DNA of 64,000 nucleotides. Origin: Streptococcus australis (GTDB taxonomy: Bacteria; Bacillota; Bacilli; Lactobacillales; Streptococcaceae). The notes beneath the pieces are model-generated. The model was not told the DNA's origin. It saw nothing but the letters and a program-made list of their open reading frames with translations, and searched no databases. Shown piece after piece: positions 35,160 through 53,935 of the stretch (position 1 is the first letter of the stretch; every line of letters starts with the position of its first letter). The stretch spans positions 558,001-622,000 of the forward strand of contig NZ_LR594040.1 in NCBI RefSeq assembly GCF_901543175.1, read 5' to 3'. Position numbers and translations under genes: made by a program.

Positions 35160-36758
35160 ATGTTTTACTTTGTACCATCTTGGTATAGACAAGATCGGAA
35201 ATGGTACTCTACCACTCTGCCTTTCTATTACGTGTCTAAAAATATGATGTTTGATGATGCGGTGAATTTGCTGCGAATGTTTCAGCAATCAGGAGAGGCA
35301 AATACCACTCTGATTTTGAACTATTCACCACATATTCGAACCTTTCTTTATCAGCAAAGAATATTGCCAGAAACTGTATGGAATCTATTTGATACTATAC
35401 AAGGCCTGACGGATGTATCTGTACGTAAAATTCGTCTAGAAGATATTAAGTGGCCTCAAGGAGTAGAATTCTTCTATACTCCTTTTATGATTGAGGTATA
35501 TTTAAATCAAGAGCACTATGCTAAAATTAACTTTTCACAAACAGGTAATTTCTTTGATATTACTTATTTTGAGGGTGGGCAGACAAATCATCAGTTAATC
35601 TTTGATGATCGTGGATTTGTTTCAAGTATCATCTATTTTGAAAATAATCAGCCTTACTACCAAGATTATTTAAATTTACAAGGTACATGGCAGTTTAGGG
35701 AATTTTTGGGCACAGAAAATCATCAAGTACTTATCAACCCTGAGGCACAGGCTACATTTGCAAAAGAAGTTTACCAAGATATTGAAGAATTGATCAATGA
35801 AAAATTAGATCAGTATCTAACTTCTACGTTAACGAAGGATGATACGATTGTGATTTCGTCAGATGTGCAGCACAATCACTTTTTCCAAAAGATTAAGAAA
35901 AATCATTATGTTATTTTGTCTTTTTTTGGAGATCGCTATCCAATCACAAACCAAGAGCAGTTGTTAACGGATTTGACAGACACGCCGTTCTTCGTTGTTG
36001 ATAGTTTAAATAAAATTGAAACGATGGCAGCTAATGTGGATCTAGAACAGTTGCCGGGCTTTTATGAGATTCCGCCTTATGATACTCATCTAAACTTAGG
36101 GCATAGTCAAAGAAAAAAAGAGTTAATTGTTTACGTCAATTACGACAATCTACCAGCAGATCAAATTCAATATGTGTTTACGACTTTGTTTGAAATGATG
36201 TTGAAAAATGAATGGATTGACTTGCTGGTTGGAACACAAAGTCAGGATTTTGGTCGAGAGGCCTATATAAAACAGGTACTAGAAAGCTATCTATCACTTA
36301 AGCCAGAATATGAACAAGATTTGATTTTTGTTGATAAAGAGAAAAGAGCGAGAGGTGAGAACCGAGTTCTTGATGATGAAGAGGAGATTGTTCGTGAACG
36401 GATTGATATTGAGACTATTCATAGCAACGTCGATTTGATTAAAGTTCTGAAGTACGTTCGTATTATACTAGATTTGGGGACTCCGGCTGATGTGTTGACT
36501 CAAATCGCTGGCATTAGTGGAGGGATCCCTCAGGTTAACTTGTATAGCTCTTCTTATGTGAAGCATGGAGAAAATGGTTGGATTCTAGAGGATATTTCAG
36601 ATTTTGAAGAGGCACTCTTATACTACCTCACAAACTTAGAACATTGGAATCAATCTCTAGTTCACTCAGTCAAGAAGATTGAACAGTACACAAGGGGTGA
36701 GATTGTCGATATGTGGAAAAATACCATAAAGGAATTAAAAGGAAATGAAAAAAATTAG
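35160..36758 (+). CDS. asp1: Accessory Sec system protein Asp1
   Basis: The 532-residue cytosolic protein begins MFYFVPSWYRQDRKWYSTTL, the family's characteristic N-terminus. Asp1 has a glycosyltransferase-like (GT-B) fold without activity and works with Asp2, Asp3 and SecA2 to deliver the glycosylated adhesin to SecY2. It starts 6 bp after secY2 and overlaps asp2 by 14 bp. Its length is close to that of other streptococcal Asp1 proteins. Confidence 0.92.
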   Translation: MFYFVPSWYRQDRKWYSTTLPFYYVSKNMMFDDAVNLLRMFQQSGEANTTLILNYSPHIRTFLYQQRILPETVWNLFDTIQGLTDVSVRKIRLEDIKWPQGVEFFYTPFMIEVYLNQEHYAKINFSQTGNFFDITYFEGGQTNHQLIFDDRGFVSSIIYFENNQPYYQDYLNLQGTWQFREFLGTENHQVLINPEAQATFAKEVYQDIEELINEKLDQYLTSTLTKDDTIVISSDVQHNHFFQKIKKNHYVILSFFGDRYPITNQEQLLTDLTDTPFFVVDSLNKIETMAANVDLEQLPGFYEIPPYDTHLNLGHSQRKKELIVYVNYDNLPADQIQYVFTTLFEMMLKNEWIDLLVGTQSQDFGREAYIKQVLESYLSLKPEYEQDLIFVDKEKRARGENRVLDDEEEIVRERIDIETIHSNVDLIKVLKYVRIILDLGTPADVLTQIAGISGGIPQVNLYSSSYVKHGENGWILEDISDFEEALLYYLTNLEHWNQSLVHSVKKIEQYTRGEIVDMWKNTIKELKGNEKN

Positions 36759-38331
36759 TGTTTTGCAAATTGCTGATGAAAATTGGCAGGAGCAATATGA
36801 AATTCCTAGTAATATAAAATGGACCTTTGTCAAACCAGAAGACATCGTTTCTTTATTGCCAGAAGATATCGGGATCTTAAATAGAGAGGCTGAGACTGAG
36901 GCGGAAAACGGAAAAAAAAAGAAGAAAAAAGTAGATAAACCGTTTGATGTCGTGTTGGTAGATACCGCTGAATATTTAGAGTATGTTACTATCTTGGATC
37001 AGAAAATTCAGGTTTACCGTCTGTTCTATCATGAGCGTTGTCGAATCACTACGAAAACATTGGAACGATTTCTTTTGCGTAAAAAGGCCGTGAAAACAAA
37101 TTTTGAAAATCCAGAGCAAATGCTACATATATTTTCACGTGGTTTTTTCTCTAAACAAAATGGAACGAAACTAAGTGTTAATCATCTAGTCGCTGCACCA
37201 TCTTTTGAAGGTCAAATCAGTTATGAAGGGACAAACTACCTTCGTTTATGTGGCCGATATGGTGAGGATTATCAGACTATCGCGACATATCAACATAATA
37301 TTTTTCTGAGTGGGGAGATGCCCTTAGATTTGTGGCCTGAGTTCAGAGTTTCAGAAGGTTGTTCGATCCGCTACGTTGTTAAAGGTTTTCCTGCTGGAAA
37401 TTCTCCCATGCAAGAATGGATTTATGATGAAACGAGTTTCGATCGGTCCCTGACGTTAGATGTAAATGATTCGTATTATTTGAGTATCAGCATTCAAGCA
37501 AAGGGACAAGGGATTGTAAAACTTGGTCCCTGCCACTATCGAGACTCCCATCTTGGTTATGGAGACTTGTTAGTCGGAGGAAAACGAATTAGCGACAAAA
37601 ATCGAGAAGAACTGATTTATTTTTTCCATCCAGGAGATTTGAAACCACCGTTGAACATCTATTTTTCAGGGTACCGTCCCGCAGAGGGATTTGAGGGATA
37701 CTGGATGATGAATAATTTGGGGTCGCCATTCTTACTGGTAGGGGATCCGCGTTCAGAGGGGGGCGCTTTCTATCTTGGATCGGAGGAGCTAGAACAAAAA
37801 CTTCTCCAAGTGGTTCATAACTGCTTAGATGAACTTGGTTTTACGACGGAACAACTGACCTTGTCAGGTTTATCAATGGGAACTTTTGGCGCCCTTTACT
37901 ATAGTTCTAAGTTGGAACCTCATGCCGTTATTGTCGGAAAACCTCTTGTTAACTTAGGAGATATGGCAGAAAATGAGTCAACTATTCGTCCGGGAGGATT
38001 TCCAACATCACTGGATTTGGTGTATCGTACAATAGGGGAGTTATCAAGCGAAGCTACAGCTCAGCTTAACGAACGTTTTTGGACGGCTTTTGAGTCAGCT
38101 GATTTTTCAAAGACTAAATTTATCATGTCCTATATGTATCAAGATGACTATGATATGTCTGCCTATCCTGATATGCTGGATGAGTTAGGACAGCGAGATT
38201 ACCGCGTCAGCGTTATCAGTAAAGGGTTGACTGGACGACACAACGATGACACAATAGGTATTGTTGAATGGTTCTTTAACCAATATAAAACACTATTAAT
38301 GAATAGTTTTGAAAGGGAGTTTAAATCGTGA
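36745..38331 (+). CDS. asp2: Accessory Sec system protein Asp2 (GlcNAc O-acetyltransferase)
   Basis: The 528-residue cytosolic protein has an alpha/beta-hydrolase-like catalytic core. The nucleophile motif LSGLSMGTFGALYYSS (GxSxG, around residue 373) and a C-terminal His in GLTGRHNDDTIG are visible. In characterised systems Asp2 acetylates GlcNAc on the adhesin and is also needed for export. An unusual Lys run (GKKKKKKVDKP, about 55-65) interrupts the N-terminal region and is encoded by a long A tract, a possible slippage point. It overlaps asp1 (14 bp) and asp3 (4 bp). Confidence 0.92.
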   Translation: MKKISVLQIADENWQEQYEIPSNIKWTFVKPEDIVSLLPEDIGILNREAETEAENGKKKKKKVDKPFDVVLVDTAEYLEYVTILDQKIQVYRLFYHERCRITTKTLERFLLRKKAVKTNFENPEQMLHIFSRGFFSKQNGTKLSVNHLVAAPSFEGQISYEGTNYLRLCGRYGEDYQTIATYQHNIFLSGEMPLDLWPEFRVSEGCSIRYVVKGFPAGNSPMQEWIYDETSFDRSLTLDVNDSYYLSISIQAKGQGIVKLGPCHYRDSHLGYGDLLVGGKRISDKNREELIYFFHPGDLKPPLNIYFSGYRPAEGFEGYWMMNNLGSPFLLVGDPRSEGGAFYLGSEELEQKLLQVVHNCLDELGFTTEQLTLSGLSMGTFGALYYSSKLEPHAVIVGKPLVNLGDMAENESTIRPGGFPTSLDLVYRTIGELSSEATAQLNERFWTAFESADFSKTKFIMSYMYQDDYDMSAYPDMLDELGQRDYRVSVISKGLTGRHNDDTIGIVEWFFNQYKTLLMNSFEREFKS

Positions 38332-39362
38332 GATACAAGGAAGAAGTCTATTTTGCTTATTGGGATATCCAAAGCGTATCTCAGTATCTATACGGTTCAT
38401 CTGTCAAACTGTTAGACGGTGGTCATGTTTTGTATGAAAACCAGTTCATGCCTTCGGGGACAGTTATTCATGAATGGCACTCACGGGCAAACTATCAGGC
38501 TTTACGCAATACGAGTCAGCTTCCTGAATTGAAACGTGGGCAAAACTATATCTTTGGCAGTCATATAGAAACCATCCCAGAAAATTCAACATACTTAAAA
38601 GTTGAATTTATGGATGCTCGAGATGAAGAAATTTCGAATCAAATCATTAAACAGGGGGAGAGAGTGAGCATATGCGTTCCAGATAGTACACAATATTACA
38701 AGGTGCAGTTAGTCAGCTCGGGTTGTCATCGCTTCCTGTTTGAAGGGATTTATGTTGCTGAGGAGCAGTTAGCGGATTATACAGTGGATCGCTACTGGAT
38801 ATCTGATTTACTTCATCAGGATTCCGAGAAAGAAACGATGTATGTTTGCTTTACTGAACCCGAACTCAATCGAACAGGTTTTATCCCAGAACATGTTCGT
38901 GAACATTTCTCAAATGTATTGATTGTTAATTCGTCTTATAGGGAGGCGCTCCTATACATGGAGGAACGATTTTACGAAACCTTGCTTGAAACGATTGAAG
39001 AATTAGCGCAAGAGCATCTTTTTGAAAAAGTGGCTTTTGTTGGTTACGGAGCGATTTCTAATATTGCGGCCCTGCATTACTCCAAACAATTTGGAAATTC
39101 ATACGCTCTTGTGACGGATGAGTTTTTAAGTGAACTAGATTATCAACGCTTGCTGGAACGTTATCGTAATCGAGTAAATCCGCCTATTTTTAAAGAATTA
39201 TTGCTGCAGCAATTTAATCCGACAAAAGTTAAGGAATATGCGAACTTGAAGACTAGACCACGTGAACTAGCAAACATTGAATATTTATTAGATAAGTCAT
39301 TTTTACTTCAAGCGATTGACTTGGAGAAAATTGAAGAGTGGATGAGAAAGAATGAAAACTAA
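38328..39362 (+). CDS. asp3: Accessory Sec system protein Asp3, with C-terminal extension
   Basis: The 344-residue protein starts at GTG 38328 inside the asp2 stop (GTGA overlap). The first ~150 residues (YFAYWDIQSVSQYLYGS, GTVIHEWHSRANYQ) match the Asp3 domain, a carbohydrate-binding-like beta fold that bridges Asp1 and Asp2. The remaining ~190 residues (from about DRYWISDLLH) include a Rossmann-like stretch (EKVAFVGYGAISNIAALHYS) that I do not firmly associate with short Asp3 forms. It overlaps secA2 by 11 bp. Confidence 0.85.
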   Translation: MRYKEEVYFAYWDIQSVSQYLYGSSVKLLDGGHVLYENQFMPSGTVIHEWHSRANYQALRNTSQLPELKRGQNYIFGSHIETIPENSTYLKVEFMDARDEEISNQIIKQGERVSICVPDSTQYYKVQLVSSGCHRFLFEGIYVAEEQLADYTVDRYWISDLLHQDSEKETMYVCFTEPELNRTGFIPEHVREHFSNVLIVNSSYREALLYMEERFYETLLETIEELAQEHLFEKVAFVGYGAISNIAALHYSKQFGNSYALVTDEFLSELDYQRLLERYRNRVNPPIFKELLLQQFNPTKVKEYANLKTRPRELANIEYLLDKSFLLQAIDLEKIEEWMRKNEN

Positions 39363-41739
39363 ACGATTCAATTTGACCAACTCCTATAAACTAATGCGTT
39401 ACAAAAAGATTTTGGAGAAGGTTAATAAACTATCTGATAGTTATGCAGCTATGTCAAATGAGAAACTGCAAGCTCAGACAAAATGGTTTAAAGAACGCCT
39501 TTCTGGAGGAGAAAGCTTGCAGTCCATTTTGCCAGAAGCGTATGCAACCATTCGTGAGGCGGCCAAGCGTATATTAGGATTATATCCTTATGATGTTCAG
39601 GTTTTAGGAGCCTTGGTTATGCAAGACAATCAGATTGCAGAAATGAGAACAGGGGAAGGAAAAACCTTGACAGCTATCCTTCCTTTATACCTAAATGCCT
39701 TGACGGAAAAAAGTACGATCTTAGTCACGGCCAATGAATATTTGGCGGCGCGTGATGCCAAGCAAATGGCACCTGTTTTTCGATTTTTAGGAATGACAGT
39801 TGGAGTAGGTGTCTCGGAAGATCCGGCAAAAAAACTTAAAATTCCTCAAAAACAACAAATCTATAAGAATGATATTGTCTATACAACACATAGTGCGTTA
39901 GGGTTTGATTACCTAGAAGAAAACTTGGCGACATCTCAATCAAAGAAGTTTTTACCAAAATTTTATTTTTGTTTGGTCGATGAAGTAGATGCAGCCTTGC
40001 TAGATAGTGCGCAGATGCCGCTAATCATTTCAGGTTCTCCTCGGGTTCAATCCAACCTCTTTCTCTCGTGTGATGAGTTTGTGAAAACTCTAAAAGAAGG
40101 GGAAGATTTTAATTTAGACTCCACTCGGACGTCTGTATGGTTGACGAGAAAAGGAGTAAAGGAAGCAGAGGTTTATTTCCGCGTTCAGAATGCCTATGAT
40201 CCAGATAATTACCAGCTCATTCGCCAAATTAACCTAGCTTTGAGAGCTAACCACTTATTTGAAAAAGATCGTCAGTACACGGTGGATAATGGCGAAGTTA
40301 AACTGATGGATGAGGCGACAGGACGTCTCTTGGAAGGAAATAAACTCCAATCAGGATTGCACCAAGCACTAGAAGCCAGAGAACGTGTGAAAATCACATT
40401 GGAAACGCGTTCGATGGCCTCTATTACCTATCAAAATTTATTTAGAATGTTTCCAAAATTAGCAGGAATGACGGGTACTGGTAAAGTTTGTGAGGAGGAG
40501 TTCAGAGACGTTTACGATTTGGGAGTCGTAGTTGTTCCTACACGAAAACCCAATTTACGAATTGATTATCCAGATGAAATCTATCTCACGATTCCTCAAA
40601 AATTATATGCTTCATTGGAGTATATCAAAAAATTACATAAAAAAGGCCAGCCAGTTTTAATTGCGACAGGATCGGTTGGAATGTCTGAGATTTATTCTAT
40701 GCTCTTACTCCAAGAGGGAATCGCCCATAATGTGTTGAACGCCCATAATGCAGCAAAAGAGGCTGAGATGATCGCACTGGCTGGTAGACGTTCTGCAGTG
40801 ACAGTAGCAACATCAATGGCAGGTCGTGGAACAGATATTATCTTGGAAGAAGGAGTTGCTGAGTTGGGTGGACTCGCTGTTGTTGGAACGGAGAGAATGT
40901 CCAGTGAGCGAGTGGATTTGCAGCTTCGTGGTCGTGCCGGACGACAAGGCGCTCCAGGATTGAGTAAATTCTTTATTTCTCTTGAGGATGATCTTATTTC
41001 CAAGTCTGGTAGCAAATGGATTAGTGAGTACTATCATAAAGAAATTGCAAAACCAGAGGAAAAACAAAAGATTCATTTGACCTCTCGTCGTATTAGATAT
41101 GCGGTTGAAGAAGCTCAGAAGAATAGTGATAACGCGTCAGCGGCTTCCAGACGTTCAACGGAACGATATGATGAAAGTATCCGTATTCAGCGACAGATTA
41201 TCTACAATAAACGTAATAAGCTCATCTCCCATCCAGAATTTGATTTGACCTATTTCTTGTCTACTCTATCGGATGCAGTGGACATTTATACAAGTAAAAC
41301 ACCGTTTAAAGAGCGGGCGGATCTGTTTCGCTTTGTTTTGGATAATATTAGTTATTACTGCGAGGATATTCCAGATGATCTAGATGTTACGGATTTACGG
41401 CAAGTTAAAAAGTTTTTATCCGACCTCCTTGTTTCAGAGTACCAGCAGAAAAAAGATAAAATCAAGGATTTAGAGTTGTTCAATCAATTTCAAAGAACTG
41501 TCGTTTTGAGAGCGATAGATGACTGTTGGGTTGAGCAGGTTGACTATTTACAGCAATTTCAAGGTTTGGTGTCTAGTCAAGGGTATGCCCAAAAAAATCC
41601 AGTCTTTGAGTTTCATAAAGAAGCTTTTAAATCATACAAAAAAATGAATGCAGATATAAATCTAAACATTATAAAAAATATGACATTGAGTTACATTAAT
41701 ATTAAGCCTTCTGGGAAGTTAGAAGTTTTCTTTGGCTAA
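39352..41739 (+). CDS. secA2: Accessory Sec ATPase SecA2
   Basis: The 795-residue DEAD-type motor drives export through SecY2. It has Walker A MRTGEGKTLTAI (about 97-108), DEVD box in FCLVDEVDAALLDS, helicase motifs TSMAGRGTDI and LRGRAGRQGAPG, and a preprotein cross-linking region between. The C-terminal zinc-binding tail of housekeeping SecA (CxCxSGxxxxxCH) is missing, as expected for SecA2. It overlaps asp3 by 11 bp and is followed by a strong new promoter rather than directly by gtfA. Confidence 0.95.
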   Translation: MKTKRFNLTNSYKLMRYKKILEKVNKLSDSYAAMSNEKLQAQTKWFKERLSGGESLQSILPEAYATIREAAKRILGLYPYDVQVLGALVMQDNQIAEMRTGEGKTLTAILPLYLNALTEKSTILVTANEYLAARDAKQMAPVFRFLGMTVGVGVSEDPAKKLKIPQKQQIYKNDIVYTTHSALGFDYLEENLATSQSKKFLPKFYFCLVDEVDAALLDSAQMPLIISGSPRVQSNLFLSCDEFVKTLKEGEDFNLDSTRTSVWLTRKGVKEAEVYFRVQNAYDPDNYQLIRQINLALRANHLFEKDRQYTVDNGEVKLMDEATGRLLEGNKLQSGLHQALEARERVKITLETRSMASITYQNLFRMFPKLAGMTGTGKVCEEEFRDVYDLGVVVVPTRKPNLRIDYPDEIYLTIPQKLYASLEYIKKLHKKGQPVLIATGSVGMSEIYSMLLLQEGIAHNVLNAHNAAKEAEMIALAGRRSAVTVATSMAGRGTDIILEEGVAELGGLAVVGTERMSSERVDLQLRGRAGRQGAPGLSKFFISLEDDLISKSGSKWISEYYHKEIAKPEEKQKIHLTSRRIRYAVEEAQKNSDNASAASRRSTERYDESIRIQRQIIYNKRNKLISHPEFDLTYFLSTLSDAVDIYTSKTPFKERADLFRFVLDNISYYCEDIPDDLDVTDLRQVKKFLSDLLVSEYQQKKDKIKDLELFNQFQRTVVLRAIDDCWVEQVDYLQQFQGLVSSQGYAQKNPVFEFHKEAFKSYKKMNADINLNIIKNMTLSYINIKPSGKLEVFFG

Positions 41740-41743: not shown

Positions 41744-41772
41744 TTGACAGATTCTGTTGTAGACTTTATAAT
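41744..41772 (+). promoter_or_regulatory. Perfect consensus sigma-A promoter
   Basis: TTGACA (41744-41749), 17 bp, TATAAT (41767-41772) match the consensus at all 12 positions, located 5 bp after the secA2 stop. It should drive the Ser/Glu/Trp-repeat gene strongly and independently of the secY2 operon. Confidence 0.85.
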
Positions 41773-41807
41773 GATGATATAACTGTATTTTTGGAGAAAA
41801 TCATATT

Positions 41808-44222
41808 ATGAGTAAAAATAATAACAAAGAGCTAAAGGGATTTAAACGTTTGATATCAAAGTTTAAGCAAAAAGGTAAGGAAGATAGTGATTACCGTAGC
41901 CTAGATGCAACTAAATCAAAGCCCGTTAGTCGAAAACTCAAAGAGCAAAAGGAAATTATTCTGAGTGCTAGTGAAGAACTTGAGTTACCAACAGAGTCAG
42001 TTTCTGTCATGGAAGCCTTAGAAGACTTTCAGGAAAGGAACAGTTTGGGAGTGGCTGACTTGATAAGGAATGTTAGTCAGAGTTTGTCAACTAGCGCTTT
42101 AGCTTCCCTCAGCCTTTCTGTCGCAGATTCGTACAGTGAGTCGTTTAGCCAGAGTATATCAGCAAAAGGATTCTCGCTTCGAGAGTCCATGTCTGAGAAC
42201 TACTCATTAGTGGTCTCTTCTTCAGAATCTGAATCTGAGTCCCTTTCCTTGGTTGATAGCCTCTCTAATTCTGAGCATTTGACAGGGGAGTCTCTTTCCT
42301 TGAGTGAATCAGAGCAAGTGAGTCCGAGTATTTCCGAGTCTGAGTTCTATAGCCTGAGCCAGAGTGAGTGGGACTCCGTTTCAGAATCCCAAAGCATTTC
42401 AGAATCAGAGTGGTGGAGTTATTCCGAATTAGAACAAGCAAGTCAGAGTGTTTCCGAGTCCGATTTCTATAGTCTGAGCCAGAGTGAGTGGGACTCCGTT
42501 TCAGACTCCCAAAGCATTTCAGAGCAGGAATGGTGGAGTTATTCCGAATCAGAGCAAGCGAGTCAGAGTGTCTCCGAGTCCGAGTTCTATAGCCTGAGCC
42601 AGAGTGAATGGGAATCCGTTTCAGAATCCCAAAGCATTTCAGAATCAGAGTGGTGGAGTTATTCCGAATCAGAACAAGCGAGTCAGAGTGTCTCCGAGTC
42701 CGAGTTCTACAGTCTGAGTCAGAGCGAGTGGGAATCCGTTTCAGAATCCCAAAGCATTTCAGAATCAGAGTGGTGGAGTTATTCCGAATCAGAACAAGCG
42801 AGTCAGAGTGTCTCCGAGTCCGAGTTCTACAGTCTGAGTCAGAGCGAGTGGGAATCCGTTTCAGAATCCCAAAGCATTTCAGAATCAGAGTGGTGGAGTT
42901 ATTCCGAATCAGAACAAGCGAGTCAGAGTGTCTCCGAGTCTGAGTTCTATAGCTTGAGCCAGAGTGAGTGGGAATCCGTTTCAGAATCCCAAAGCTACTC
43001 AGAGCAGGAGTGGTGGAGCTATTCCGAATCAGAACAAGCAAGTCAGAGTGTTTCCGAGTCTGAGTTCTATAGCCTGAGCCAGAGTGAATGGGAATCCGTT
43101 TCAGAATCCCAAAGCTACTCAGAACAAGAGTGGTGGAGTTATTCCGAATCAGAACAAGCGAGTCAGAGTGTCTCCGAGTCCGAGTTCTATAGCCTGAGCC
43201 AGAGTGAGTGGGAATCCGTTTCAGAATTCCAAAGCATTTCAGAATCAGAGTGGTGGAGTTATTCCGAATCAGAGCAAGCGAGTCAGAGTGTCTCCGAGTC
43301 CGACTTCTATAGCCTGAGTCAGAGCGAGTGGGAATCTGTTTCAGAATCCCAAAGCATTTCAGAATCAGAGTGGTGGAGTTATTCCGAATCAGAGCAAGCG
43401 AGTCAGAGTGTCTCCGAGTCTGAGTTCTATAGCCTGAGCCAGAGTGAGTGGGAATCTGTTTCAGAATCCCAAAGCATTTCAGAATCAGAGTGGTGGAGTT
43501 ATTCCGAATCAGAGCAAGCGAGTCAGAGTGTCTCCGAGTCCGAGTTCTACAGCCTGAGTCAGAGCGAGTGGGAATCCCTTTCGGAGTCTGAATCCTTGAG
43601 TGAGATGATTTCTCATTTACTTTCTGAGTCCGAGTCATTAAGTTTGAGCGAAGTCCTCTATCTCAGTGAGTCTGAATCCTTGAGTCAAAGCCAACAAATA
43701 TCTGAATCCTTAAGTCAAAGTCAGAGTGTAGCTGATTCGGTGAGTTTAAGGAAAGCATCCCTATCTCAATCCTATAGTATGTTAGAATCAGAATTTGGTT
43801 CCTATAGACAGAGTGTAGCGGAGACAGAAGTATTCGCGCATGACTTGCATACTTCGGAACGTCTGTATAAGAGCCTCTCTGAACAGGATATGAGCCCTCT
43901 AACTCACCAGCAAAAAGTGCAAGAAGTGATGACACCTGAAATTTCTGAAGAAGGATCGTCTCAAGCACCTATTGTTGAGGAGCAACAGGAGTCTGAAAAT
44001 AGAGAAGAATTGATAAAGAATGTAGATTTGCAAGACTCTCTGAAACATCTGTCTCACTATTCAGGAGCAAATGGTACAAATTTAAGGATGACAGAACGCC
44101 AACTCTACCATCTACTCAAACCAGGTTCGCAGCCCCTAGCACGTGACTTAAGAAATGTTGCAAGTGAATTGTCTGGTTTGGTTGCTATTACTCAAAAAAG
44201 GGAAGATGAGAAATCATCCTAA
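41808..44222 (+). CDS. Ser/Glu/Trp 40-residue repeat protein in the accessory Sec locus
   Basis: The 804-residue protein is not one I can name. Residues 1-60 are basic (KGFKRLISKFKQKGKE), 60-170 Ser-rich, then 11 tandem 40-residue repeats (about 172-595; unit SESEFYSLSQSEWESVSESQ plus a half with SEWWSY and SEQASQS), then a Ser/Glu and a charged C-terminal region. There is no visible signal peptide, no KxYKxGKxW motif, no TM segment and no LPXTG. A cytosolic location is therefore predicted unless it uses an atypical signal. It lies between secA2 and gtfA, and the GtfA/GtfB enzymes glycosylate Ser-rich sequence in the cytosol, so it could be a substrate or scaffold. It is driven by a perfect consensus promoter. 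Confidence 0.75.
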   Translation: MSKNNNKELKGFKRLISKFKQKGKEDSDYRSLDATKSKPVSRKLKEQKEIILSASEELELPTESVSVMEALEDFQERNSLGVADLIRNVSQSLSTSALASLSLSVADSYSESFSQSISAKGFSLRESMSENYSLVVSSSESESESLSLVDSLSNSEHLTGESLSLSESEQVSPSISESEFYSLSQSEWDSVSESQSISESEWWSYSELEQASQSVSESDFYSLSQSEWDSVSDSQSISEQEWWSYSESEQASQSVSESEFYSLSQSEWESVSESQSISESEWWSYSESEQASQSVSESEFYSLSQSEWESVSESQSISESEWWSYSESEQASQSVSESEFYSLSQSEWESVSESQSISESEWWSYSESEQASQSVSESEFYSLSQSEWESVSESQSYSEQEWWSYSESEQASQSVSESEFYSLSQSEWESVSESQSYSEQEWWSYSESEQASQSVSESEFYSLSQSEWESVSEFQSISESEWWSYSESEQASQSVSESDFYSLSQSEWESVSESQSISESEWWSYSESEQASQSVSESEFYSLSQSEWESVSESQSISESEWWSYSESEQASQSVSESEFYSLSQSEWESLSESESLSEMISHLLSESESLSLSEVLYLSESESLSQSQQISESLSQSQSVADSVSLRKASLSQSYSMLESEFGSYRQSVAETEVFAHDLHTSERLYKSLSEQDMSPLTHQQKVQEVMTPEISEEGSSQAPIVEEQQESENREELIKNVDLQDSLKHLSHYSGANGTNLRMTERQLYHLLKPGSQPLARDLRNVASELSGLVAITQKREDEKSS
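42322..43590 (+). repeat. Eleven tandem 120-bp coding repeats
   Basis: The block beginning TCCGAGTCTGAGTTCTA recurs every 120 bp (42331, 42451, 42571 ... 43531), with high DNA identity and mainly synonymous or S/E, Q/E, D/E changes. The antisense strand is also open through the array; I treat that as a composition effect. Confidence 0.92.
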
Positions 44223-44272
44223 ATAGAACTTGCAATCATTAAATAGAAATAATAAAATCAAAAGGAGTCACT

Positions 44273-45442
44273 ATGATTAGAAATATGATGTCAAATAGTA
44301 AAAAAGCTTTGGGTACTACAGATGTACTACCCGTTGACCAATATCGGATAGAAGTTTTGAATGGAACAGTTGACTACAAAAATGTACCTTTAGGATCCTA
44401 TGATATCCTAGGGAGATTTGTTTCAGCAGGTCAGAGAGATTATACAGAAGACCTGAATTTGATTCAATCAATGGGTTTTAATGCCTATAGAATCTCGATC
44501 TCTTGGGCACGCATCTTTCCAAGTGGTGAAGAGTTGCAGCCGAGTGAAGAGGGGTTGAAATATTATGAAGCAATCATCGATGACGTATTAGAAAAAGATA
44601 TCGAACCGATTGTGACATTGAGTCACTTTGATCTTCCGCTGAATCTATACGAAAAATATGGAGCTTGGAAAAGCCGCAATATGATTGAACTCTTTGAGCG
44701 TTACGCAGAGGCTGTCTTTCAGTACTTTAAGGACAAAGTGAAGTATTGGATTACCTTCAATGAGTTCAATGTTTTGCACCATTTGCCGTTTCTTGGTGGG
44801 GGATTGTCTTTTGGACCAGATGACAATCAAGAACAGGTGATTTGGCAAGCAGCTCATTATCAATTAGTTGCTTCTGCACGTGCAATCAAGCTCGGAAAAA
44901 CAATCAACCCAGAGTTTCAGTTTGGTGGGATGATGGTTGTTAGTAAAAACTACAGTCAGCAAACTGAAAGTACTATTGATGTAATGGAAGCAGAAGTCAA
45001 AGATAGGGAAAATTATTTGTTTACAGACGTGCAAGTTCGTGGATACTACCCAAATCACTTTTTGCGTCGTTTGGAACGTGATCAAATCGCCTTGGATATT
45101 GAAAATGACGACCTCTTTGTCCTAAGAGATGGGAAAATTGACTTTGTCAGCTTCAGTTATTATGCATCAAGCAATTCCCAAGAAGTTTTTATCAACAAAT
45201 ATGCAAATAATGGCCAAAATCGCATTGATTCTTTGGGACTTCGCCTCGTGATGAACAATCTTTACGATCGTTACCAAAAACCACTCTTCGTCGTAGAAGA
45301 TGATGTGGTCTTGGATGATTCAAATAGCGTAGCAACTGAAGAGCTGAAAACGAATATCCAAGAGATCGTGAAAACAGTTGAGTATGATGGTGTGGAATTA
45401 CTTGGCTATACACCACTTACTTTTACGGAACTAAATTTTTAA
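44273..45442 (+). CDS. GH1 glycoside hydrolase-like protein, shortened and with altered active-site motifs
   Basis: The 389-residue protein is clearly of the GH1 (beta-glucosidase/6-phospho-beta-glucosidase) fold: NAYRISISWARIFPSG, IEPIVTLSHFDLPLNL, YWITFNEFNVL, ELLGYTPL. It lacks the N-terminal strand with the usual Q-x-E-G-A substrate motif and the last ~60-70 residues containing the substrate-binding W/E loop. The acid/base E164 is kept but NEP is NEF; the nucleophile E342 is kept but ENG is EDD. It is either a pseudo-enzyme or a specialised glycan binder or hydrolase for the adhesin. AAAGGAGT precedes ATG 44273. It follows the repeat gene by 50 bp. Confidence 0.8.
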   Translation: MIRNMMSNSKKALGTTDVLPVDQYRIEVLNGTVDYKNVPLGSYDILGRFVSAGQRDYTEDLNLIQSMGFNAYRISISWARIFPSGEELQPSEEGLKYYEAIIDDVLEKDIEPIVTLSHFDLPLNLYEKYGAWKSRNMIELFERYAEAVFQYFKDKVKYWITFNEFNVLHHLPFLGGGLSFGPDDNQEQVIWQAAHYQLVASARAIKLGKTINPEFQFGGMMVVSKNYSQQTESTIDVMEAEVKDRENYLFTDVQVRGYYPNHFLRRLERDQIALDIENDDLFVLRDGKIDFVSFSYYASSNSQEVFINKYANNGQNRIDSLGLRLVMNNLYDRYQKPLFVVEDDVVLDDSNSVATEELKTNIQEIVKTVEYDGVELLGYTPLTFTELNF

Positions 45443-45504
45443 AATAGGAAGTAATAACTCGAATTCTTTCTGGTTTAAGAGTAGTGTTCATGTTTTGACT
45501 TTTG

Positions 45505-45537
45505 AAAATGTCTGATCTATCAATCAGACATTTTTTA
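45505..45537 (+). terminator. Intrinsic terminator after the GH1-like gene
   Basis: AAAATGTCTGAT (45505-45516) pairs with ATCAGACATTTT; a run of T follows. Confidence 0.85.
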
Positions 45538-45640
45538 GAAATGGATGAGCTTTAAGCTAAGTTCGAGTTTTGCTTGATAGCGCTTCAGGATATTTTCCTT
45601 ATTTGGAGCTTAGAAAAGAATAGCAATTTACGCTATTTTA

Positions 45641-45649
45641 TGCTACAAT
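45641..45649 (+). promoter_or_regulatory. Extended -10 promoter before the DivIVA-like gene
   Basis: TGCTACAAT is identical to the -10 element of the secY2 operon promoter (33358-33366). It begins the unit DivIVA-like-gtfA-gtfB-asp4-like. Confidence 0.55.
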
Positions 45650-45697
45650 GAGGGGGAGTGGTGTAAATCAGAATAAGTAAGGAATAGAGGGAGCAAA

Positions 45698-46384
45698 ATG
45701 AGACTTAAGAAAACATTGTTCGGTAACTACCGTGCTAAGGAAGTCGAAGATTGTATCGAAGCATTAGAGGAAGGGTTCGATCGTGAAATTCAAAAGAAGA
45801 ATGAAAAAATCGAGTCCCTACGTAAAAAAATCGACTCTATGAAGAATCAAGAAAAAGAGATCGGTGAAGCAATCATTTATGCCAAATCTCTTGTTATTGA
45901 AGCTCATGATAGGGCTGAAAAAGAAGCTAAAGAAGTTTTAGAAAAGGCGCAAAAAGACTATTTGGATACGAGAGAATCTATTCTCGAAGAAATCGATACT
46001 CTGACAAAAAAACGGGCAGAGGCTGAGAGATTGTATAATTTACAAAAAGAAAAAATTAAAAATATTATTAGTCGAATTGATGATTTTCTAGAACTGGACG
46101 ATATCGATGCTAAACCAAAAGATATCAAAAAAATTCAAGAATTACGTAAAGAACTTGATAGACCAGAAGAAGTTGCTAAGGAGAAAGAAGAGGTGGTGCC
46201 TGAGAGAGAAAAAATCCATCTCGAACAACCCCTTGCAAAAACAGGAACAGATAGTACCATCTCTGTCAGCCACATCACTTCACGTCGCGTAAAACCTAAA
46301 AAGAAAGACGAAGATAAGTTAGATGATGATAAGGGCAAGAGAATCAAACGTCTTTCGAGAATTAAACGAGATAACTTTTTGTAA
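45698..46384 (+). CDS. DivIVA-like coiled-coil protein in the accessory Sec locus
   Basis: The 228-residue soluble, strongly charged protein has an N-terminal LKKTLFGNYRAKEVEDCIEALEEGF reminiscent of the DivIVA lipid-binding motif (F-x-GY-x3-EVD-x-FL), then continuous heptad-rich coiled coil (about 25-125), a shorter helix, and a basic tail (RRVKPKKK, RIKRLSRIKR). DivIVA proteins bind curved membrane and recruit partners to septa and poles. Its place just before gtfA suggests it could position the adhesin export machine. GAGGGAG lies before ATG 45698 and gtfA begins 14 bp after its stop. The family call is by pattern only. Confidence 0.65.
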   Translation: MRLKKTLFGNYRAKEVEDCIEALEEGFDREIQKKNEKIESLRKKIDSMKNQEKEIGEAIIYAKSLVIEAHDRAEKEAKEVLEKAQKDYLDTRESILEEIDTLTKKRAEAERLYNLQKEKIKNIISRIDDFLELDDIDAKPKDIKKIQELRKELDRPEEVAKEKEEVVPEREKIHLEQPLAKTGTDSTISVSHITSRRVKPKKKDEDKLDDDKGKRIKRLSRIKRDNFL

Positions 46385-46398: not shown

Positions 46399-47928
46399 AT
46401 GACAATTTATAACATCAATTTGGGGATTGGCTGGGCGAGTAGCGGTGTAGAATATGCACAGATTTACCGTGCAAAATTGCTTCGTAGTGTTGGCTTAGAA
46501 GCGAAGTTCATCTTTATGGATTTTATATCTGCTGATAACATTGAACATTTGACAAAGAATATTGGCTTTGAAGATTCTGAAGTTATCTGGCTTTATCAGT
46601 ATTTTACAGATGTTAAAATTGCACCGACGACCTATACGCTAGCACAGGTCTTAGCGAGTTTCAATAAAGAGCCCCTCGAAATTATTCGAGACACCGATAT
46701 GAAGACGATTCGACTTGTATTTGATGATGGTGATTTTGTGACTTGTTATGCCTGTGATATGGACAAAGAATTGATTGAGCGCGCTGAAATTGTTTCGCGT
46801 GGTTGTTTGATTCAAAAAGAGTACTATACTTATACGAAGAATTTTATCGAGTATTTTAGTCCGATGAATGGTCATGCGCAATTATATCAACGTACCTGGC
46901 TCAATGAAGATGGCAGTGTGGCTTATGAGGAAATCATCAATGAAGTCGATGGTAGACAGGAGACGCAAGTCTATCGTTTCCCAAATCATGTTTTCTATTC
47001 TAAGCAAGAGTTTGTCGCACATTTTATGAGAAGTTTGTCTCTGACGGACAAAGATTTATTGATCTTAGACCGAGAGACAGATATTGGTCAAGCTATCTTT
47101 GCTAATAAGGGCGCTGCAAAGCTAGTCGTAATCGTTCATGCAGACCACTTTAGTGAAAATCCTGCTGAGAAAGACTATATTTTATGGAATAACTATTATG
47201 AGTATCAGTTCGAACATGCTGACGAGGTGGACTATATCGTTAACTCGACCGATGCGCAAACGAACCTACTCAAAGAACAATTCGCTCAATATACAAACAT
47301 CAAACCAAATGAAATCTTGACTATTCCGGTGGGAAGTTTGGATCAATTGCGTCATCCAGAAGGAGAGCGCAAGCCGTTTGGATTGATTACAGCTTCTCGC
47401 TTGGCAAGTGAAAAGCATATTGATTGGTTGATTCACTCTGTAGTGAAGGCACATGAGCAATTACCTGAAATCACTTTTGATATCTATGGTACGGGTGGTG
47501 AAAGAGCCATGTTGGAGCAGTTGATTCATGAGTTAAATGCAGAAGAGTATATCCGTCTGATGGGACATCACCACATGGCAGATGTTTATCGAAATTACTC
47601 TGCTTACCTGTCTGCCTCGACAAGTGAAGGATTTGGTTTGACCTTGTTAGAAGCGGTTGGCTCTGGTCTGCCAATTATTGGTTTTGATGTACGTTATGGA
47701 AATCCAACCTTTATCCGTGATGGGGAAAATGGCTACTTGATTCCTGAGGCGCGTCCAGATGATCTGGATGCAATGACAACAGAATATGCAGAAAAGATTG
47801 TCCAGCTATTTACTCAACATTCCCAAGAAGATTTATCCCGTGTGTCCTACGAGGTGGCAGAACCATATCTTGATGAACATATCGCCCAGCGTTGGTATGA
47901 TCTTGTTCAATCTGCACAGCATCAGTAG
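46399..47928 (+). CDS. gtfA: SRR glycoprotein O-GlcNAc transferase catalytic subunit GtfA
   Basis: The 509-residue GT-B glycosyltransferase (GT4 type) begins MTIYNINLGIGWASSGVEYAQ, as in other accessory Sec GtfA proteins. The C-terminal donor-binding half contains ITASRLASEKHIDWL and the E-x7-E type motif EGFGLTLLEAVGSGLP. With GtfB it transfers GlcNAc from UDP-GlcNAc to Ser/Thr of the adhesin in the cytoplasm. It is followed by gtfB after 27 bp. Confidence 0.94.
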   Translation: MTIYNINLGIGWASSGVEYAQIYRAKLLRSVGLEAKFIFMDFISADNIEHLTKNIGFEDSEVIWLYQYFTDVKIAPTTYTLAQVLASFNKEPLEIIRDTDMKTIRLVFDDGDFVTCYACDMDKELIERAEIVSRGCLIQKEYYTYTKNFIEYFSPMNGHAQLYQRTWLNEDGSVAYEEIINEVDGRQETQVYRFPNHVFYSKQEFVAHFMRSLSLTDKDLLILDRETDIGQAIFANKGAAKLVVIVHADHFSENPAEKDYILWNNYYEYQFEHADEVDYIVNSTDAQTNLLKEQFAQYTNIKPNEILTIPVGSLDQLRHPEGERKPFGLITASRLASEKHIDWLIHSVVKAHEQLPEITFDIYGTGGERAMLEQLIHELNAEEYIRLMGHHHMADVYRNYSAYLSASTSEGFGLTLLEAVGSGLPIIGFDVRYGNPTFIRDGENGYLIPEARPDDLDAMTTEYAEKIVQLFTQHSQEDLSRVSYEVAEPYLDEHIAQRWYDLVQSAQHQ

Positions 47929-49928: not shown

Positions 49929-51485
49929 GGTCGCAATTGGATAAAAGAAAGGAATCGAATGTTTCGAAGTAAAAAATTTAACAAAGATTTCGAGATCGTA
50001 GATGAGAAAAAGCGTTATAAGCTTTACAAGTCGGGGAAAAACTGGGTGAAAGCCTCGAACTCTCAATTGGATCTCTTCCGTATCGGTGGGATGGGCGAAG
50101 TTGTCTCTAGTACCCTGTCAGACACTGAAGAACTTGATCACGCACACCTTAGTCTTAACACGTTAGCGGGTATAGGGGGAATCCTGGCCGCGGGGGCTGC
50201 AGGATTTGTGATGACTCAAGAGCAAACTGTATACGCAGATGAAACATCTGAGTACAAAGAAACGGATAAAGCAGTCATCGCAGCTGAACCGAAAGCAGCT
50301 GAAACAACTGAAACAAGTACTAACTCAATCATCGCTCAAGCGCAAGCAGAAGTAAAGAAAGCTCAAGCAGAACAAGCATCTGCCTCAGCTTCTGTATCAG
50401 TCAGTCAATCTGTTGAGGCTCAAGTGAGTGCGAGTCAGTCAGCTTCAGTCAGTCAATCTGCCTCAGCAAGTCAGTCAGTTTTAGCTAGTCAGTCAGCATC
50501 TGCAAGTGCTTCAACATCAGCAGGTCAGTCAACTGTTCCAGCATCTGAGTCAGCGAGTCAATCAACATCAGCTCCTGCATCAGTCTCAGCAAGCGCAAAA
50601 ACATCTGCCTCAGTAAGCTCTGCACCATCAGAGTCAGCAAGCGCTCCAGCACCTGCCTCTGTAGTTGAGAGTACATCAGTTGTTAGCGAACCGTCAGCTC
50701 AGGCTTCTGTGTCTACCTCAACTTCTGCATCGCTCAACCTTAAGGTCAACCCTGCAGCAAGTCTTGTATCAGGTAGTGCTAACCAAAGTTTGGCAAGTGC
50801 AGCTCTTAGCACAAGTCAAGCAGTAACGACCAGCAACAATATCGCAGCTGGTGTTGTAGCGGATAAGAACCAAGCCCAAGGTAAGGATACAACCAAGCAA
50901 GCTGAGAAAGACCAAAAAGCAGATAAGGCTGTAAATAATTCACCAAAAGAAGCAGGTCAGTCAGGTTTCCGTAGTGCTGGTTATTCAGGTTTCCGTAGGT
51001 TGCCACAACCAGGTGATGAAGGATTTGATTGGGCTCCGAGACTTCAGGTCATAGATGGACCTGGGAATGTTGTTCTCCAACCTGGTCAAAAGTTCAATTT
51101 CACTGTAACTATCCATCACAGAAACTCTACAAACCAATTTGTACATCCAGCTAAACTAACTCTGATAGATAACTACAGACGGATTAAACCAAATGGTGAC
51201 TGGATAACATATAAATTTACTTCTAGTGGCCCTGATGTTAAGATGAGAGTTTATGGTACTGTTCCAGAGAATCCTCAATCACTTACATATTTTGCAGCAC
51301 TGCAAAATGAGGGAACAAATCAAAGGAGATTCCCGATAAGAGGCTTCTCAATGACTATTGATGGTAACGGTAGCATCTCTAAGTCGACATCAGCAAGCCA
51401 ATCAGTAAGCTCAAGTCAAAGAGCTTCAGCGAGTGCATCGCTTAGCGCACATCAATCCCACTCAGCATCTGTATCAGCAAGCATC

Positions 51486-52160
51486 AGTGCGAGCCAATCA
51501 GCATCAAGCTCAGCAAAAGCTAGCCAAAGTGCTTCAGCAAGTCGCTCAGCTTCAGCATCTGTAAGTGCAAGCCAATCAGCGTCAAGCTCAGCAAAAGCTA
51601 GCCAAAGTGCTTCAGCAAGTCGCTCAGCTTCAGCATCTGTAAGTGCAAGCCAATCAGCGTCAAGCTCAGCAAAAGCTAGCCAAAGTGCTTCAGCAAGTCG
51701 CTCAGCTTCAGCATCTGTAAGTGCAAGCCAATCAGCATCAAGCTCAGCAAAAGCTAGCCAAAGTGCTTCAGCAAGTCGCTCAGCTTCAGCGTCTGTAAGT
51801 GCTAGCCAATCAGCATCGAATTCAGCAAAAGCTAGCCAAAGTGCTTCAGCAAGTCGCTCAGCTTCAGCATCTGTAAGTGCAAGCCAATCAGCGTCAAGCT
51901 CAGCAAAAGCTAGCCAAAGTGCTTCAGCAAGTCGCTCAGCTTCAGCATCTGTAAGTGCAAGCCAATCAGCATCAAGCTCAGCAAAAGCTAGCCAAAGTGC
52001 TTCAGCAAGTCGCTCAGCTTCAGCATCTGTAAGTGCAAGCCAATCAGCATCAAGCTCAGCAAAAGCTAGCCAAAGTGCTTCAGCAAGTCGCTCAGCTTCA
52101 GCGTCTGTAAGTGCTAGCCAATCAGCATCGAATTCAGCAAAAGCTAGCCAAAGTGCTTCA
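51486..52160 (+). repeat. 78-bp tandem repeats in the SRR region
   Basis: Eight full copies and one partial copy of a 26-codon unit ([20 protein letters not shown] plus SASASV) occur in direct tandem with almost identical DNA. Lys and Arg occur once per unit, unlike the later repeats. Confidence 0.9.
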
Positions 52161-52309
52161 GCATCTGTATCAGCTAGCCAAAGCGCATCAGCATCTGTAA
52201 GTGCAAGCGACTCAGCTTCAGCGTCTGTATCAACAAGCATCAGTGCGAGCCAATCAGCATCAAGCTCAGCAAGTGCTAGTCAAAGTGCTTCAGCAAGTAC
52301 AAGCGACTC

Positions 52310-53935
52310 AGCATCTGTATCCGCTAGCCAATCAGCTTCAGCTTCTGTAAGTGCAAGTCAATCAGCTTCAGCATCTAATAACCAGAACTCAGCTTCTATC
52401 TCAGCAAGCGCGAGCCATTCTGCGTCAATTAGTGCGAGCCAAAGTGCATCAGCGTCTGTATCAGCAAGCATCAGTGCGAGTCAATCAGCATCTGTATCAG
52501 CAAGCCAAAGCGCATCAGCTTCTGTAAGTGCAAGCGACTCAGCATCTGTATCCGCTAGCCAATCAGCTTCAGCTTCTGTAAGTGCAAGTCACTCAGCTAG
52601 CGCATCAGTATCCGCAAGCCAAAGTGCTTCAGCATCAGCATCTAACAACCAGAACTCAGCTTCTATCTCAGCAAGCGCGAGCCATTCTGCGTCAATTAGT
52701 GCGAGCCAAAGTGCATCAGCGTCTGTATCAGCAAGCATCAGTGCAAGTCAATCAGCTAGCGCATCAGTATCAGCAAGCCAAAGTGCTTCAGCTTCAGCAT
52801 CTAACAACCAGAACTCAGCTTCTATCTCAGCAAGCGCGAGCCATTCTGCGTCAATTAGTGCGAGCCAAAGTGAATCAGCGTCTGTATCAGCAAGCATCAG
52901 TGCGAGTCAATCAGCATCTGTATCAGCTAGCCAATCAGCATCAGCTTCTGTAAGTGCAAGCGACTCAGCATCTGTATCCGCTAGCCAATCAGCTTCAGCA
53001 TCTGTAAGTGCAAGTCAATCAGCTAGCGCATCAGTATCAGCAAGCCAAAGTGCTTCAGCTTCAGCATCTAACAACCAGAACTCAGCTTCTATCTCAGCAA
53101 GCGCGAGCCATTCTGCGTCAATTAGTGCGAGCCAAAGTGAATCAGCGTCTGTATCAGCAAGCATCAGTGCGAGTCAATCAGCATCTGTATCAGCTAGCCA
53201 ATCAGCATCAGCTTCTGTAAGTGCAAGCGACTCAGCATCTGTATCCGCTAGCCAATCAGCTTCAGCTTCTGTAAGTGCAAGTCAATCAGCTAGCGCATCA
53301 GTATCAGCAAGCCAAAGTGCTTCAGCTTCAGCATCTAACAACCAGAACTCAGCTTCTATCTCAGCAAGCGCGAGCCATTCTGCGTCAATTAGTGCGAGCC
53401 AAAGTGCATCAGCGTCTGTATCAGCAAGCATCAGTGCGAGTCAATCAGCATCTGTATCAGCAAGCCAAAGCGCATCAGCTTCTGTAAGTGCAAGCGACTC
53501 AGCATCTGTATCCGCTAGCCAATCAGCTTAAGCATCTGTAAGTGCAAGTCAATCAGCAAGCGCATCAGTATCTGCAAGCCAAAGTGCTTCAGCTTCAGCA
53601 TCTAACAACCAGAACTCAGCTTCTATCTCAGCAAGCGCGAGCCATTCTGCGTCAATTAGTGCGAGCCAAAGTGCATCAGCGTCTGTATCAGCAAGCATCA
53701 GTGCGAGTCAATCAGCATCTGTATCAGCAAGCCAAAGTGCATCAGCTTCAGCATCTAACAACCAGAACTCAGCTTCTATCTCAGCAAGCGCGAGCCATTC
53801 TGCGTCAATTAGTGCGAGCCAAAGTGCATCAGCGTCTGTATCAGCAAGCATCAGTGCGAGTCAATCAGCATCTGTATCAGCAAGCCAAAGCGCATCAGCT
53901 TCTGTAAGTGCAAGCGACTCAGCATCTGTATCCGC
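52310..53935 (+). repeat. 267-bp higher-order repeats (NNQNSASIS units)
   Basis: The marker ACCAGAACTCAGC recurs at about 52381, 52648, 52807, 53074, 53341, 53608 and 53761. Spacings are 267, 159, 267, 267, 267 and 153 bp, i.e. an 89-codon unit with shortened versions. The nonsense codon lies in this array; the same position one unit upstream (53262-53264) is TCA. Confidence 0.88.

What the first reader, a model, noticed from the sequence alone, without database searches (positions are those of the whole stretch)
41744..46384. Three-gene insertion inside an accessory Sec / SRR adhesin island
Seen: between secA2 and gtfA, which are usually close neighbours in described streptococcal loci, lie a Ser/Glu/Trp-repeat protein, a GH1-like protein and a DivIVA-like coiled-coil protein, with two extra promoters and a terminator. 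Known: this locus glycosylates and exports one giant adhesin. Inference: the three form an add-on module, for example a cytosolic glycan-bearing scaffold, a glycan-recognising pseudo-enzyme and a pole or septum targeting factor. I know of no described role for such proteins in this pathway.
Basis: partly seen in the sequence, partly recalled or inferred. Interest (0 to 1): 0.82.

Follow-up and report, generated by a model that had tools for sequence, protein, structure and literature searches.

The report
Extra three-gene kit for sticky hairs
Some mouth streptococci carry three extra genes inside the machinery that makes their long sugar-coated surface hairs; in the genomes searched the three came as a set, and they may be the parts that put the hairs on one side of the cell.

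Summary
Between secA2 and gtfA lie a leaderless Ser/Glu/Trp-repeat protein (SEW, 804 aa), a trimmed glycoside-hydrolase-1 protein (GH1L, 389 aa) and an extra DivIVA-like coiled coil (228 aa). Strong matches to all three occur in the same 21 of 284 Streptococcus genomes; all 21 have gtfA, 20 also SecA2, SecY2 and an SRR signal. By anatomy they are two units: SEW+GH1L, and DivIVA-like+gtfA+gtfB. In three genomes two islands look merged by reciprocal loss (one lacks secY2/secA2, the other gtfA/gtfB), yet all three genes remain. GH1L lacks barrel strand 1 and the phosphate-binding tail, keeps both catalytic Glu, and is under purifying selection. S. cristatus-type genomes hold a second Ser-rich+GH1L pair. 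Six streptococci without the set carry a weakly related DivIVA-like gene just upstream of a YSIRK adhesin gene. Named carriers are S. cristatus, S. oralis (one subsp. dentisani) and Streptococcus sp.; S. cristatus and dentisani are reported with tufted or one-sided fibrils. Most likely (0.5): a helper set that concentrates SRR glycosylation and export at one site. No experiment shows this; one carrier without SecA2, SecY2 or SRR signal counts against a strict link.

The parts
33894..35153 (+). secY2 (divergent)
   Evidence: Pfam SecY; TIGR02920 245.7 bits, under cut-off 249.6
35160..36758 (+). asp1
   Evidence: TIGR03713 over cut-off
36745..38331 (+). asp2
   Evidence: TIGR03712 over cut-off
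38328..39362 (+). asp3, long form (344 aa)
   Evidence: TIGR03711 covers residues 11-141 only; 344 aa also in L016, L122, L181, L184; 146 aa in the four ordinary islands read
39352..41739 (+). secA2
   Evidence: TIGR03714 1077.5 bits, over cut-off 930
41744..41772 (+). promoter of the SEW-GH1L unit (TTGACA-17-TATAAT, 12/12)
   Evidence: matched in 12 of 12 secA2-SEW gaps and readable in 3 loci without secA2 there
41808..44222 (+). SEW: leaderless Ser/Glu/Trp-repeat protein, basic amphipathic N-terminus, acidic repeats, short conserved C-terminus
   Evidence: 21/284 genomes
42306..43582 (+). 120-bp (40-aa) tandem repeat array inside SEW, 10.6 copies
44273..45442 (+). GH1L: GH1-derived protein without barrel strand 1 and without the C-terminal tail of the enzymes; catalytic E164 and E342 kept
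   Evidence: 21/284 genomes at 74% identity or more
45505..45536 (+). likely intrinsic terminator after GH1L
   Evidence: z -3.7; a hairpin of different sequence is seen by eye at the same place in the two S. cristatus loci printed; not listed
45641..45649 (+). extended -10 (TGCTACAAT) of the DivIVA-like/gtfA/gtfB unit
   Evidence: read by eye in 5 of 5 loci printed; not flagged by the scan
45698..46384 (+). DivIVA-like coiled coil (one helix 13-133, disordered tail)
   Evidence: Pfam DivIVA 24 bits; model; 21/284 genomes at E 1e-54 or better
46399..47928 (+). gtfA
   Evidence: TIGR02918 741.7 bits
47956..49284 (+). gtfB
   Evidence: TIGR02919 526.4 bits
49353..49529 (+). small one-span ORF in the place where asp4 would be expected (label recalled; no family search run)
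49959..61136 (+). SRR adhesin with KxYKxGKxW signal, interrupted by an in-frame TAA at 53529-53531

Best explanation
The three genes are a dedicated cytoplasmic helper set of one divergent accessory Sec lineage, most likely the part that gathers SRR-adhesin glycosylation and export at one place on the membrane so that the fibrils appear as a one-sided tuft. Proposed mechanism: the DivIVA-like coiled coil marks a curved membrane site and touches SecA2 (inferred); SEW docks on the membrane by its basic amphipathic N-terminus, and its long acidic Ser-rich repeat, perhaps a GtfA/GtfB substrate that is not exported, forms a multivalent scaffold (inferred); GH1L, a GH1 fold turned into a binding protein, is SEW's partner, binding its glycans or conserved ends (inferred from constant pairing). 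Shown: the anatomy, the joint occurrence, the link to gtfAB and asp1-3, purifying selection, and the extra DivIVA-family gene. Inferred: location, glycosylation of SEW and all contacts.
For: Identical carrier sets of 21 of 284 genomes for the three genes at strong scores; 21/21 have gtfA against 181/284 overall (Fisher p 7e-5, not corrected for kinship); 20/21 have SecA2 at E 0, SecY2 (8 of the 20 just under the curated cut-off) and an SRR signal. In G131, G230 and G125 the ordinary island lacks gtfA-gtfB and the module-type island lacks secY2/secA2, yet SEW, GH1L, DivIVA-like, asp1-3 and gtfAB of the module type remain. SEW+GH1L recurs as a separate pair in 9 of the 21 carriers, the S. cristatus-type genomes. 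Weaker DivIVA-like relatives sit directly upstream of a YSIRK adhesin gene in 6 of 6 genomes (giant in the 3 read in full). Precedents: DivIVA influences SecA2 secretion in Listeria (passage of PMC4010754); DivIVA cross-links with SecA in B. subtilis (passages of PMC3924036). Named carriers are S. cristatus, S. oralis and Streptococcus sp.; S. cristatus has lateral tufts and dentisani asymmetric SRR fibrils (passages of PMC9446765 and PMC10188223), while Fap1 fimbriae of S. parasanguinis are called peritrichous (passages of PMC2335109).
Against: No location data. G121 (complete, one contig) keeps the module, asp1-3 and gtfAB but has no detectable SecA2, SecY2 or KxYKxGKxW adhesin. In G092 the DivIVA-like gene lies in two frames, in G128 and G125 SEW is split, in G125 gtfA too. 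The tuft link is at species level only: the dentisani strain studied by microscopy (F0392) was not available here, and Ronis 2019 and Handley 2005 were not held. Fibril placement in genomes with an ordinary island and no module is unknown. GH1L keeps both catalytic Glu, so it may be an enzyme. The DivIVA-adhesin pairs are at 31-33% identity, E 9e-8 to 4e-6.
Confidence: 0.5

Rival explanations
1. Glycosylation helper, not a positioning device: SEW is a cytosolic GtfAB substrate that buffers, primes or titrates the glycosyltransferase, and GH1L trims or senses the glycan; the DivIVA-like protein merely holds the complex at the membrane.
For: DivIVA-like stays directly upstream of gtfA-gtfB even where the island is split (4 of 4 such genomes); G121 keeps gtfAB and SEW without a detected SRR signal, SecA2 or SecY2; both catalytic Glu invariant in 16 of 16 aligned proteins and 41 of 41 in the larger set, enzymes included.
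Against: GH1L lacks strand 1 and the tail of the enzymes in 11 of 11 family members aligned; the second paralogue changes the residue before the acid/base Glu (Asn to Lys); a trimming enzyme does not by itself need a DivIVA-like partner.
Confidence: 0.3
2. SEW is itself exported as a leaderless serine-rich surface protein by this divergent SecA2, with GH1L and the DivIVA-like protein as its chaperones.
For: Leaderless proteins have been reported as SecA2 substrates in Listeria, though indirect release was discussed (passages of PMC4010754); SEW resembles SRR tracts in composition.
Against: No KxYKxGKxW signal and no wall anchor in the sequence, N-terminus a short basic amphipathic segment; G121 has SEW without a detectable SecA2.
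Confidence: 0.08
3. Hitchhikers: genes trapped in the island that spread with it and have no function in the pathway.
For: Islands recombine and carry mobile debris (transposase-like ORFs in L122, a restriction-modification-like insert in L012).
Against: Identical carrier sets, dN/dS 0.05-0.12 for GH1L and 0.10-0.19 for DivIVA-like in the pairs that are not saturated, conserved promoter, retention after the island was split, repeated pairing of a Ser-rich protein with GH1L.
Confidence: 0.07

Closest known systems
Streptococcal accessory Sec / SRR glycosylation island (secY2-asp1-3-secA2-gtfAB-SRR)
   Same: Same core genes; same order secY2-asp1-asp2-asp3-secA2 ... gtfA-gtfB as in G119; SRR adhesin with KxYKxGKxW signal
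   Different: 4,659 bp with SEW, GH1L and DivIVA-like between secA2 and gtfA; asp3 of 344 instead of 146 aa; GtfA on a long separate branch. The review passages read (PMC7661464, PMC6973325) name extra glycosyltransferases as accessory genes, none of these three
6-phospho-beta-glucosidase BglA (GH1; 2xhy, 6wgd, 3pn8)
   Different: Starts after barrel strand 1 and stops eight residues after GYTP: no N-terminal NQxEG segment, no SxxxxKRY tail, shortened loop before the nucleophile
DivIVA / GpsB
   Same: N-terminal LFGxYxxKEV..I..LE segment and long coiled coil; Pfam DivIVA hit
   Different: Additional paralogue; under the Pfam cut-off in the window (24-26 bits) and in G018 (26.8), just over it in G121, G125, G131 and G230; tied to gtfAB
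SRR adhesins (GspB, Fap1, Hsa type)
   Same: Long serine-rich acidic repeats, encoded in the same island
   Different: SEW has no export signal and no LPxTG; its units are 40 aa with Trp/Tyr/Phe

Membership tests
Accessory Sec / SRR island | secY2, asp1-3, secA2, gtfA, gtfB and an SRR adhesin together | tested here: met
   SecY2 slightly under its curated cut-offs, adhesin frame interrupted
Accessory Sec / SRR island | secA2 directly followed by gtfA, as in the ordinary island of G119 (a usual, not a defining, trait) | tested here: not met
   12 nt in G119 against 4,659 nt here
GH1 glycoside hydrolase | fold and two catalytic Glu | tested here: met
GH1 glycoside hydrolase | complete eight-stranded barrel | tested here: not met
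   strand 1 absent in 11 of 11 family members aligned; seven barrel strands in the model
GH1 glycoside hydrolase | 6-phosphate-binding tail (SxxxxKRY; its role is recalled) | tested here: not met
   sequence ends before it in 11 of 11 family members aligned
GH1 glycoside hydrolase | hydrolytic activity | not testable with these tools
   needs an assay
DivIVA | Pfam PF05103 over gathering score | tested here: inconclusive
   24.1-26.0 bits in the window, 26.8 in G018, 28.6-29.5 in four others; cut-off 28
DivIVA | long coiled coil after an N-terminal membrane-binding segment | tested here: inconclusive
   helix 13-133 with pLDDT mostly over 90 and conserved LFG.Y at residues 7-11; oligomer and lipid binding not testable
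SRR adhesin (for SEW) | KxYKxGKxW signal and LPxTG anchor | tested here: not met
   none in the sequence; the only KxYKxGKxW hit in this genome is the adhesin
One-sided fibril determinant | loss of lateral position on deletion | not testable with these tools
   needs mutants and electron microscopy

The most novel reading that the evidence does not exclude
SEW, GH1L and the DivIVA-like protein build an intracellular organelle-like scaffold, held together by O-glycans that GtfA/GtfB put on a protein never meant for export and read by a disarmed glycosidase, which fixes the accessory Sec translocon to one flank of a coccus and so makes the lateral tufts with which S. cristatus and S. oralis build corncobs in plaque.
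Probability: 0.25. Interest if true: 0.92.

Novelty: new variant of a known kind. Interest (0 to 1): 0.72.

Why it matters
Lateral tufts marked S. crista (now S. cristatus) when it was described ('tufted fibrils', reference title seen); its tufts are said to enable adhesion to Corynebacterium matruchotii, and dentisani to form asymmetric fibrils that likely act in adhesion. In the texts I could search I met no gene proposed to set the one-sidedness. This work names three candidates that track an accessory Sec lineage found in these species, shows that they survive rearrangement of the island, and hints at a wider theme, DivIVA-like proteins coupled to large adhesins, since other streptococci place a DivIVA-like gene before a YSIRK adhesin gene. 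If SEW is glycosylated, it would also be a Ser-rich protein that stays inside the cell in a protein O-glycosylation system.

Tried and rejected
Considered and set aside: (1) assembly or repeat artefact: rejected, the genes recur in 21 genomes. (2) Broken or leftover bgl gene: rejected, GH1L is a family of about 390 aa under purifying selection. (3) Canonical DivIVA or GpsB moved into the island: rejected, a 264-298-aa DivIVA frame and a 115-130-aa GpsB-sized frame lie elsewhere in all 7 genomes tested; G119 and G230 show one further short frame over cut-off beside divIVA, so a plain count of family members does not separate carriers from the one non-carrier, only the hit at the module position does (the name GpsB is recalled). 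(4) Antisense ORF 42265-43638 (457 aa) as a gene: probably a mechanical shadow of the repeats; not tested. (5) Asp3 extension as a copy of Asp2: no similarity found, no solved relative by sequence. (6) A piece of the window's SRR repeat as probe for adhesins in G121: uninformative, it also missed G131 and G230, where an SRR adhesin is seen. (7) SEW and the Ser-rich protein of the second pair as clear homologues: only short N- and C-terminal matches (single-comparison E 0.003 and 0.002, hhalign probability 10 and 13%), so suggestive only. (8) Sampling of the order: SEW in G000 plus one E 0.009 hit, DivIVA-like strongly in G000 only, with 4 weak hits, of 246 genomes; the draw held no other known carrier, so it speaks on other genera only. 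(9) PDB profile search with the DivIVA-like alignment gave coiled coils without clear meaning, and the single protein none. (10) GtfA tree: the tool warns that non_G009 joins the module group by long branches with weak support (61/63); the grouping of the 10 module rows itself is 100/100.

Literature: eight searches listed no paper whose title or abstract start deals with these genes; the library holds open-licence papers only, and I read passages of nine of them, none whole. Ronis 2019 (one-sided fibrils) and Handley 2005 (SrpA) are not held; I know them through citing passages and recall.
Full report
WHAT IS THERE. The window lies in a 1.93-Mb Streptococcus genome. The island runs secY2, asp1, asp2, asp3, secA2, SEW, GH1L, DivIVA-like, gtfA, gtfB, a small one-span ORF and an SRR adhesin. 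SEW has 804 residues, 31% Ser, 17% Glu, 31 Trp, net charge -121, no membrane span (best 19-residue hydropathy 0.83) and no signal; its N-terminal segment (best window residues 2-19) is basic and amphipathic (moment 0.56, above 99.8% of the protein's windows) and its last 30 residues are conserved. In G121 the N-terminal window is amphipathic too (0.47) but ties with one at residue 49. A 12/12 promoter precedes SEW and is matched in 12 of 12 secA2-SEW gaps printed; the same element can be read before SEW in three loci where secA2 is absent, next to what looks by eye like a scar of the secA2 end. GH1L is followed by a likely terminator, and the DivIVA-like gene has its own extended -10, read by eye. 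So there are two transcription units by anatomy; transcripts were not measured.

DISTRIBUTION. In 284 Streptococcus genomes (one per species) GH1L at 74% identity or more is in 21, the SEW N-terminus in 21 (E up to 0.001), the DivIVA-like protein at E 1e-54 or better in 21, plus 6 weak ones. The three sets are identical: G000, G018-G025, G092, G113, G114, G116, G121, G125, G128, G131, G201, G225, G230, G241. GtfA is in 181 of 284 at E 1e-100 (178 over cut-off) and in all 21. SecA2 over cut-off is in 167 of 284; 20 of the 21 have a match at E 0. SecY2: 20 of 21, of which 8 S. oralis-type ones lie just under the curated cut-off (245 against 249.6 bits) at the island. Fisher p for gtfA is 7e-5, not corrected for kinship. 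By position, 17 of 21 have secA2-SEW-GH1L-DivIVA-like in this order: seen by tblastn for 15 of them, window included (G201 has a contig break inside SEW, so only the part from SEW on is in one piece; G018 has a 6.6-kb restriction-modification-like insert before DivIVA-like), and by hit coordinates for SEW-GH1L-DivIVA-like in G019 and G025. Thirteen named records carry GH1L at 75% or more: six S. cristatus, three S. oralis, one S. oralis subsp. dentisani and three Streptococcus sp. (which kept 79 of 107 loci).

RECIPROCAL LOSS. In G131 (record titled S. oralis subsp. dentisani), G125 (titled S. oralis) and G230 (unnamed) the module-type island is split: a giant adhesin, asp1, asp2, asp3, SEW, GH1L in one place and DivIVA-like, gtfA, gtfB in another; I call this the dentisani type. 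In G131 and G230 a contig end cuts SEW, whose end still adjoins GH1L; in the draft G125 SEW and gtfA are split into frames. The three genomes also have an ordinary island secY2-asp1-asp2-asp3-secA2, in which gtfA and gtfB, present right after secA2 in G119, are missing. So two islands seem to have merged, each supplying what the other lost, and all three module genes were kept. G121 keeps asp1-3, SEW, GH1L, DivIVA-like, gtfA and gtfB in one stretch broken by transposase-like ORFs and another adhesin, but shows no SecA2 over cut-off, no SecY2 beyond the canonical SecY level and no KxYKxGKxW signal. I cannot say whether this is recent decay or a second function.

PAIRS ELSEWHERE. Nine of the 21 carriers (the S. 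cristatus type: six by record title, one Streptococcus sp. Marseille-P6264, two unnamed) have a second GH1L (51-53% identical) directly after another leaderless Ser-rich protein, with no accessory Sec gene in the 19-kb stretches read. The six weak DivIVA-like relatives (31-33%) lie directly upstream of a YSIRK-type adhesin frame in 6 of 6; in the three read in full it has 2,391, 2,779 and 2,941 residues, the first rich in collagen-flanked surface repeats. For the other three only the first 486-493 residues lie in the locus.

LINEAGE. In a tree of 30 GtfA proteins (10 of the 21 carriers' and 20 of the 160 other genomes', picked by me) the module-type GtfA form one group, 100/100, on a branch of 0.83 (root by midpoint, long-branch warning for one outside row). 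The module therefore marks a divergent lineage. Asp3 is 344 residues in the module-type loci listed and 146 in the four ordinary islands read.

HOW IT MAY WORK. See Best explanation. The step from 'belongs to the pathway' (about 0.85) to 'positions it' (about 0.5) rests on the DivIVA family's known use as a topological factor, the reported influence of DivIVA on SecA2 in Listeria and its cross-link to SecA in B. subtilis, the DivIVA-adhesin pairing elsewhere, and the overlap of named carriers with species described as tufted or one-sided. The abstract of Ronis 2019 is recalled, not read; the passage in PMC9446765 says that dentisani forms fibrils distributed asymmetrically and that S. cristatus has tufts that enable adhesion to C. 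matruchotii. Fap1 fimbriae of S. parasanguinis are called peritrichous; no S. parasanguinis record is among the named carriers, but its absence was not tested by name. Related splitting is in print: Streptococcus sp. DD12 has two SecA2/Y2 clusters, one without gtf genes (passage of PMC6973325).

LIMITS. Some carriers have damaged copies: DivIVA-like in G092, SEW in G128 and G125 (both drafts). Promoter and terminator calls are by sequence only.

Noticed in passing
window 53529-53531: The SRR adhesin of this strain is interrupted by an in-frame TAA in its repeats; the same frame stays open on both sides. Other carriers have open SRR frames of over 4,000 residues (G025, G092, G113, G116).
   Followed up: partly
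window 38763-39362: Asp3 carries about 200 extra C-terminal residues that the Pfam, NCBIfam and PDB sequence searches do not explain; the long form is seen in the module-type loci read, the short one in four ordinary islands.
   Followed up: partly
L187:9906-10490, L188:9686-10249, L189:9593-10177, L150, L153, L154: A small DivIVA-like gene directly upstream of a YSIRK adhesin gene in six streptococci without the module: another possible DivIVA-adhesin pair.
   Followed up: partly
L113:6831-10680 and the corresponding place in L112, L114-L120: Second leaderless Ser-rich protein plus GH1L pair in nine S. cristatus-type genomes; in L113 it lies beside an ABC transporter, with no accessory Sec genes near.
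   Followed up: partly
L122:2135-18894 and L185 (genome G121): Module, asp1-3 and gtfAB kept in a complete genome without detectable SecA2, SecY2 or SRR signal.
   Followed up: partly
L012:11445-17584: A DNA-methylase-like and a specificity-subunit-like ORF and a transposase-like ORF between GH1L and the DivIVA-like gene in one S. cristatus (labels by eye).
   Followed up: no
P0038: A GH1L relative at 65% in Streptococcus sp. oral taxon 056 F0418, a lineage outside the 21 carriers; its neighbourhood was not seen.
   Followed up: no
window 25667-33169: A 2,500-residue YSIRK/LPxTG adhesin upstream of secY2 whose relatives also precede asp1 in three dentisani-type loci.
   Followed up: no
window 42265-43638, minus strand: A 457-residue open frame antisense to the SEW repeats, probably a by-product of the repeat sequence.
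   Followed up: no
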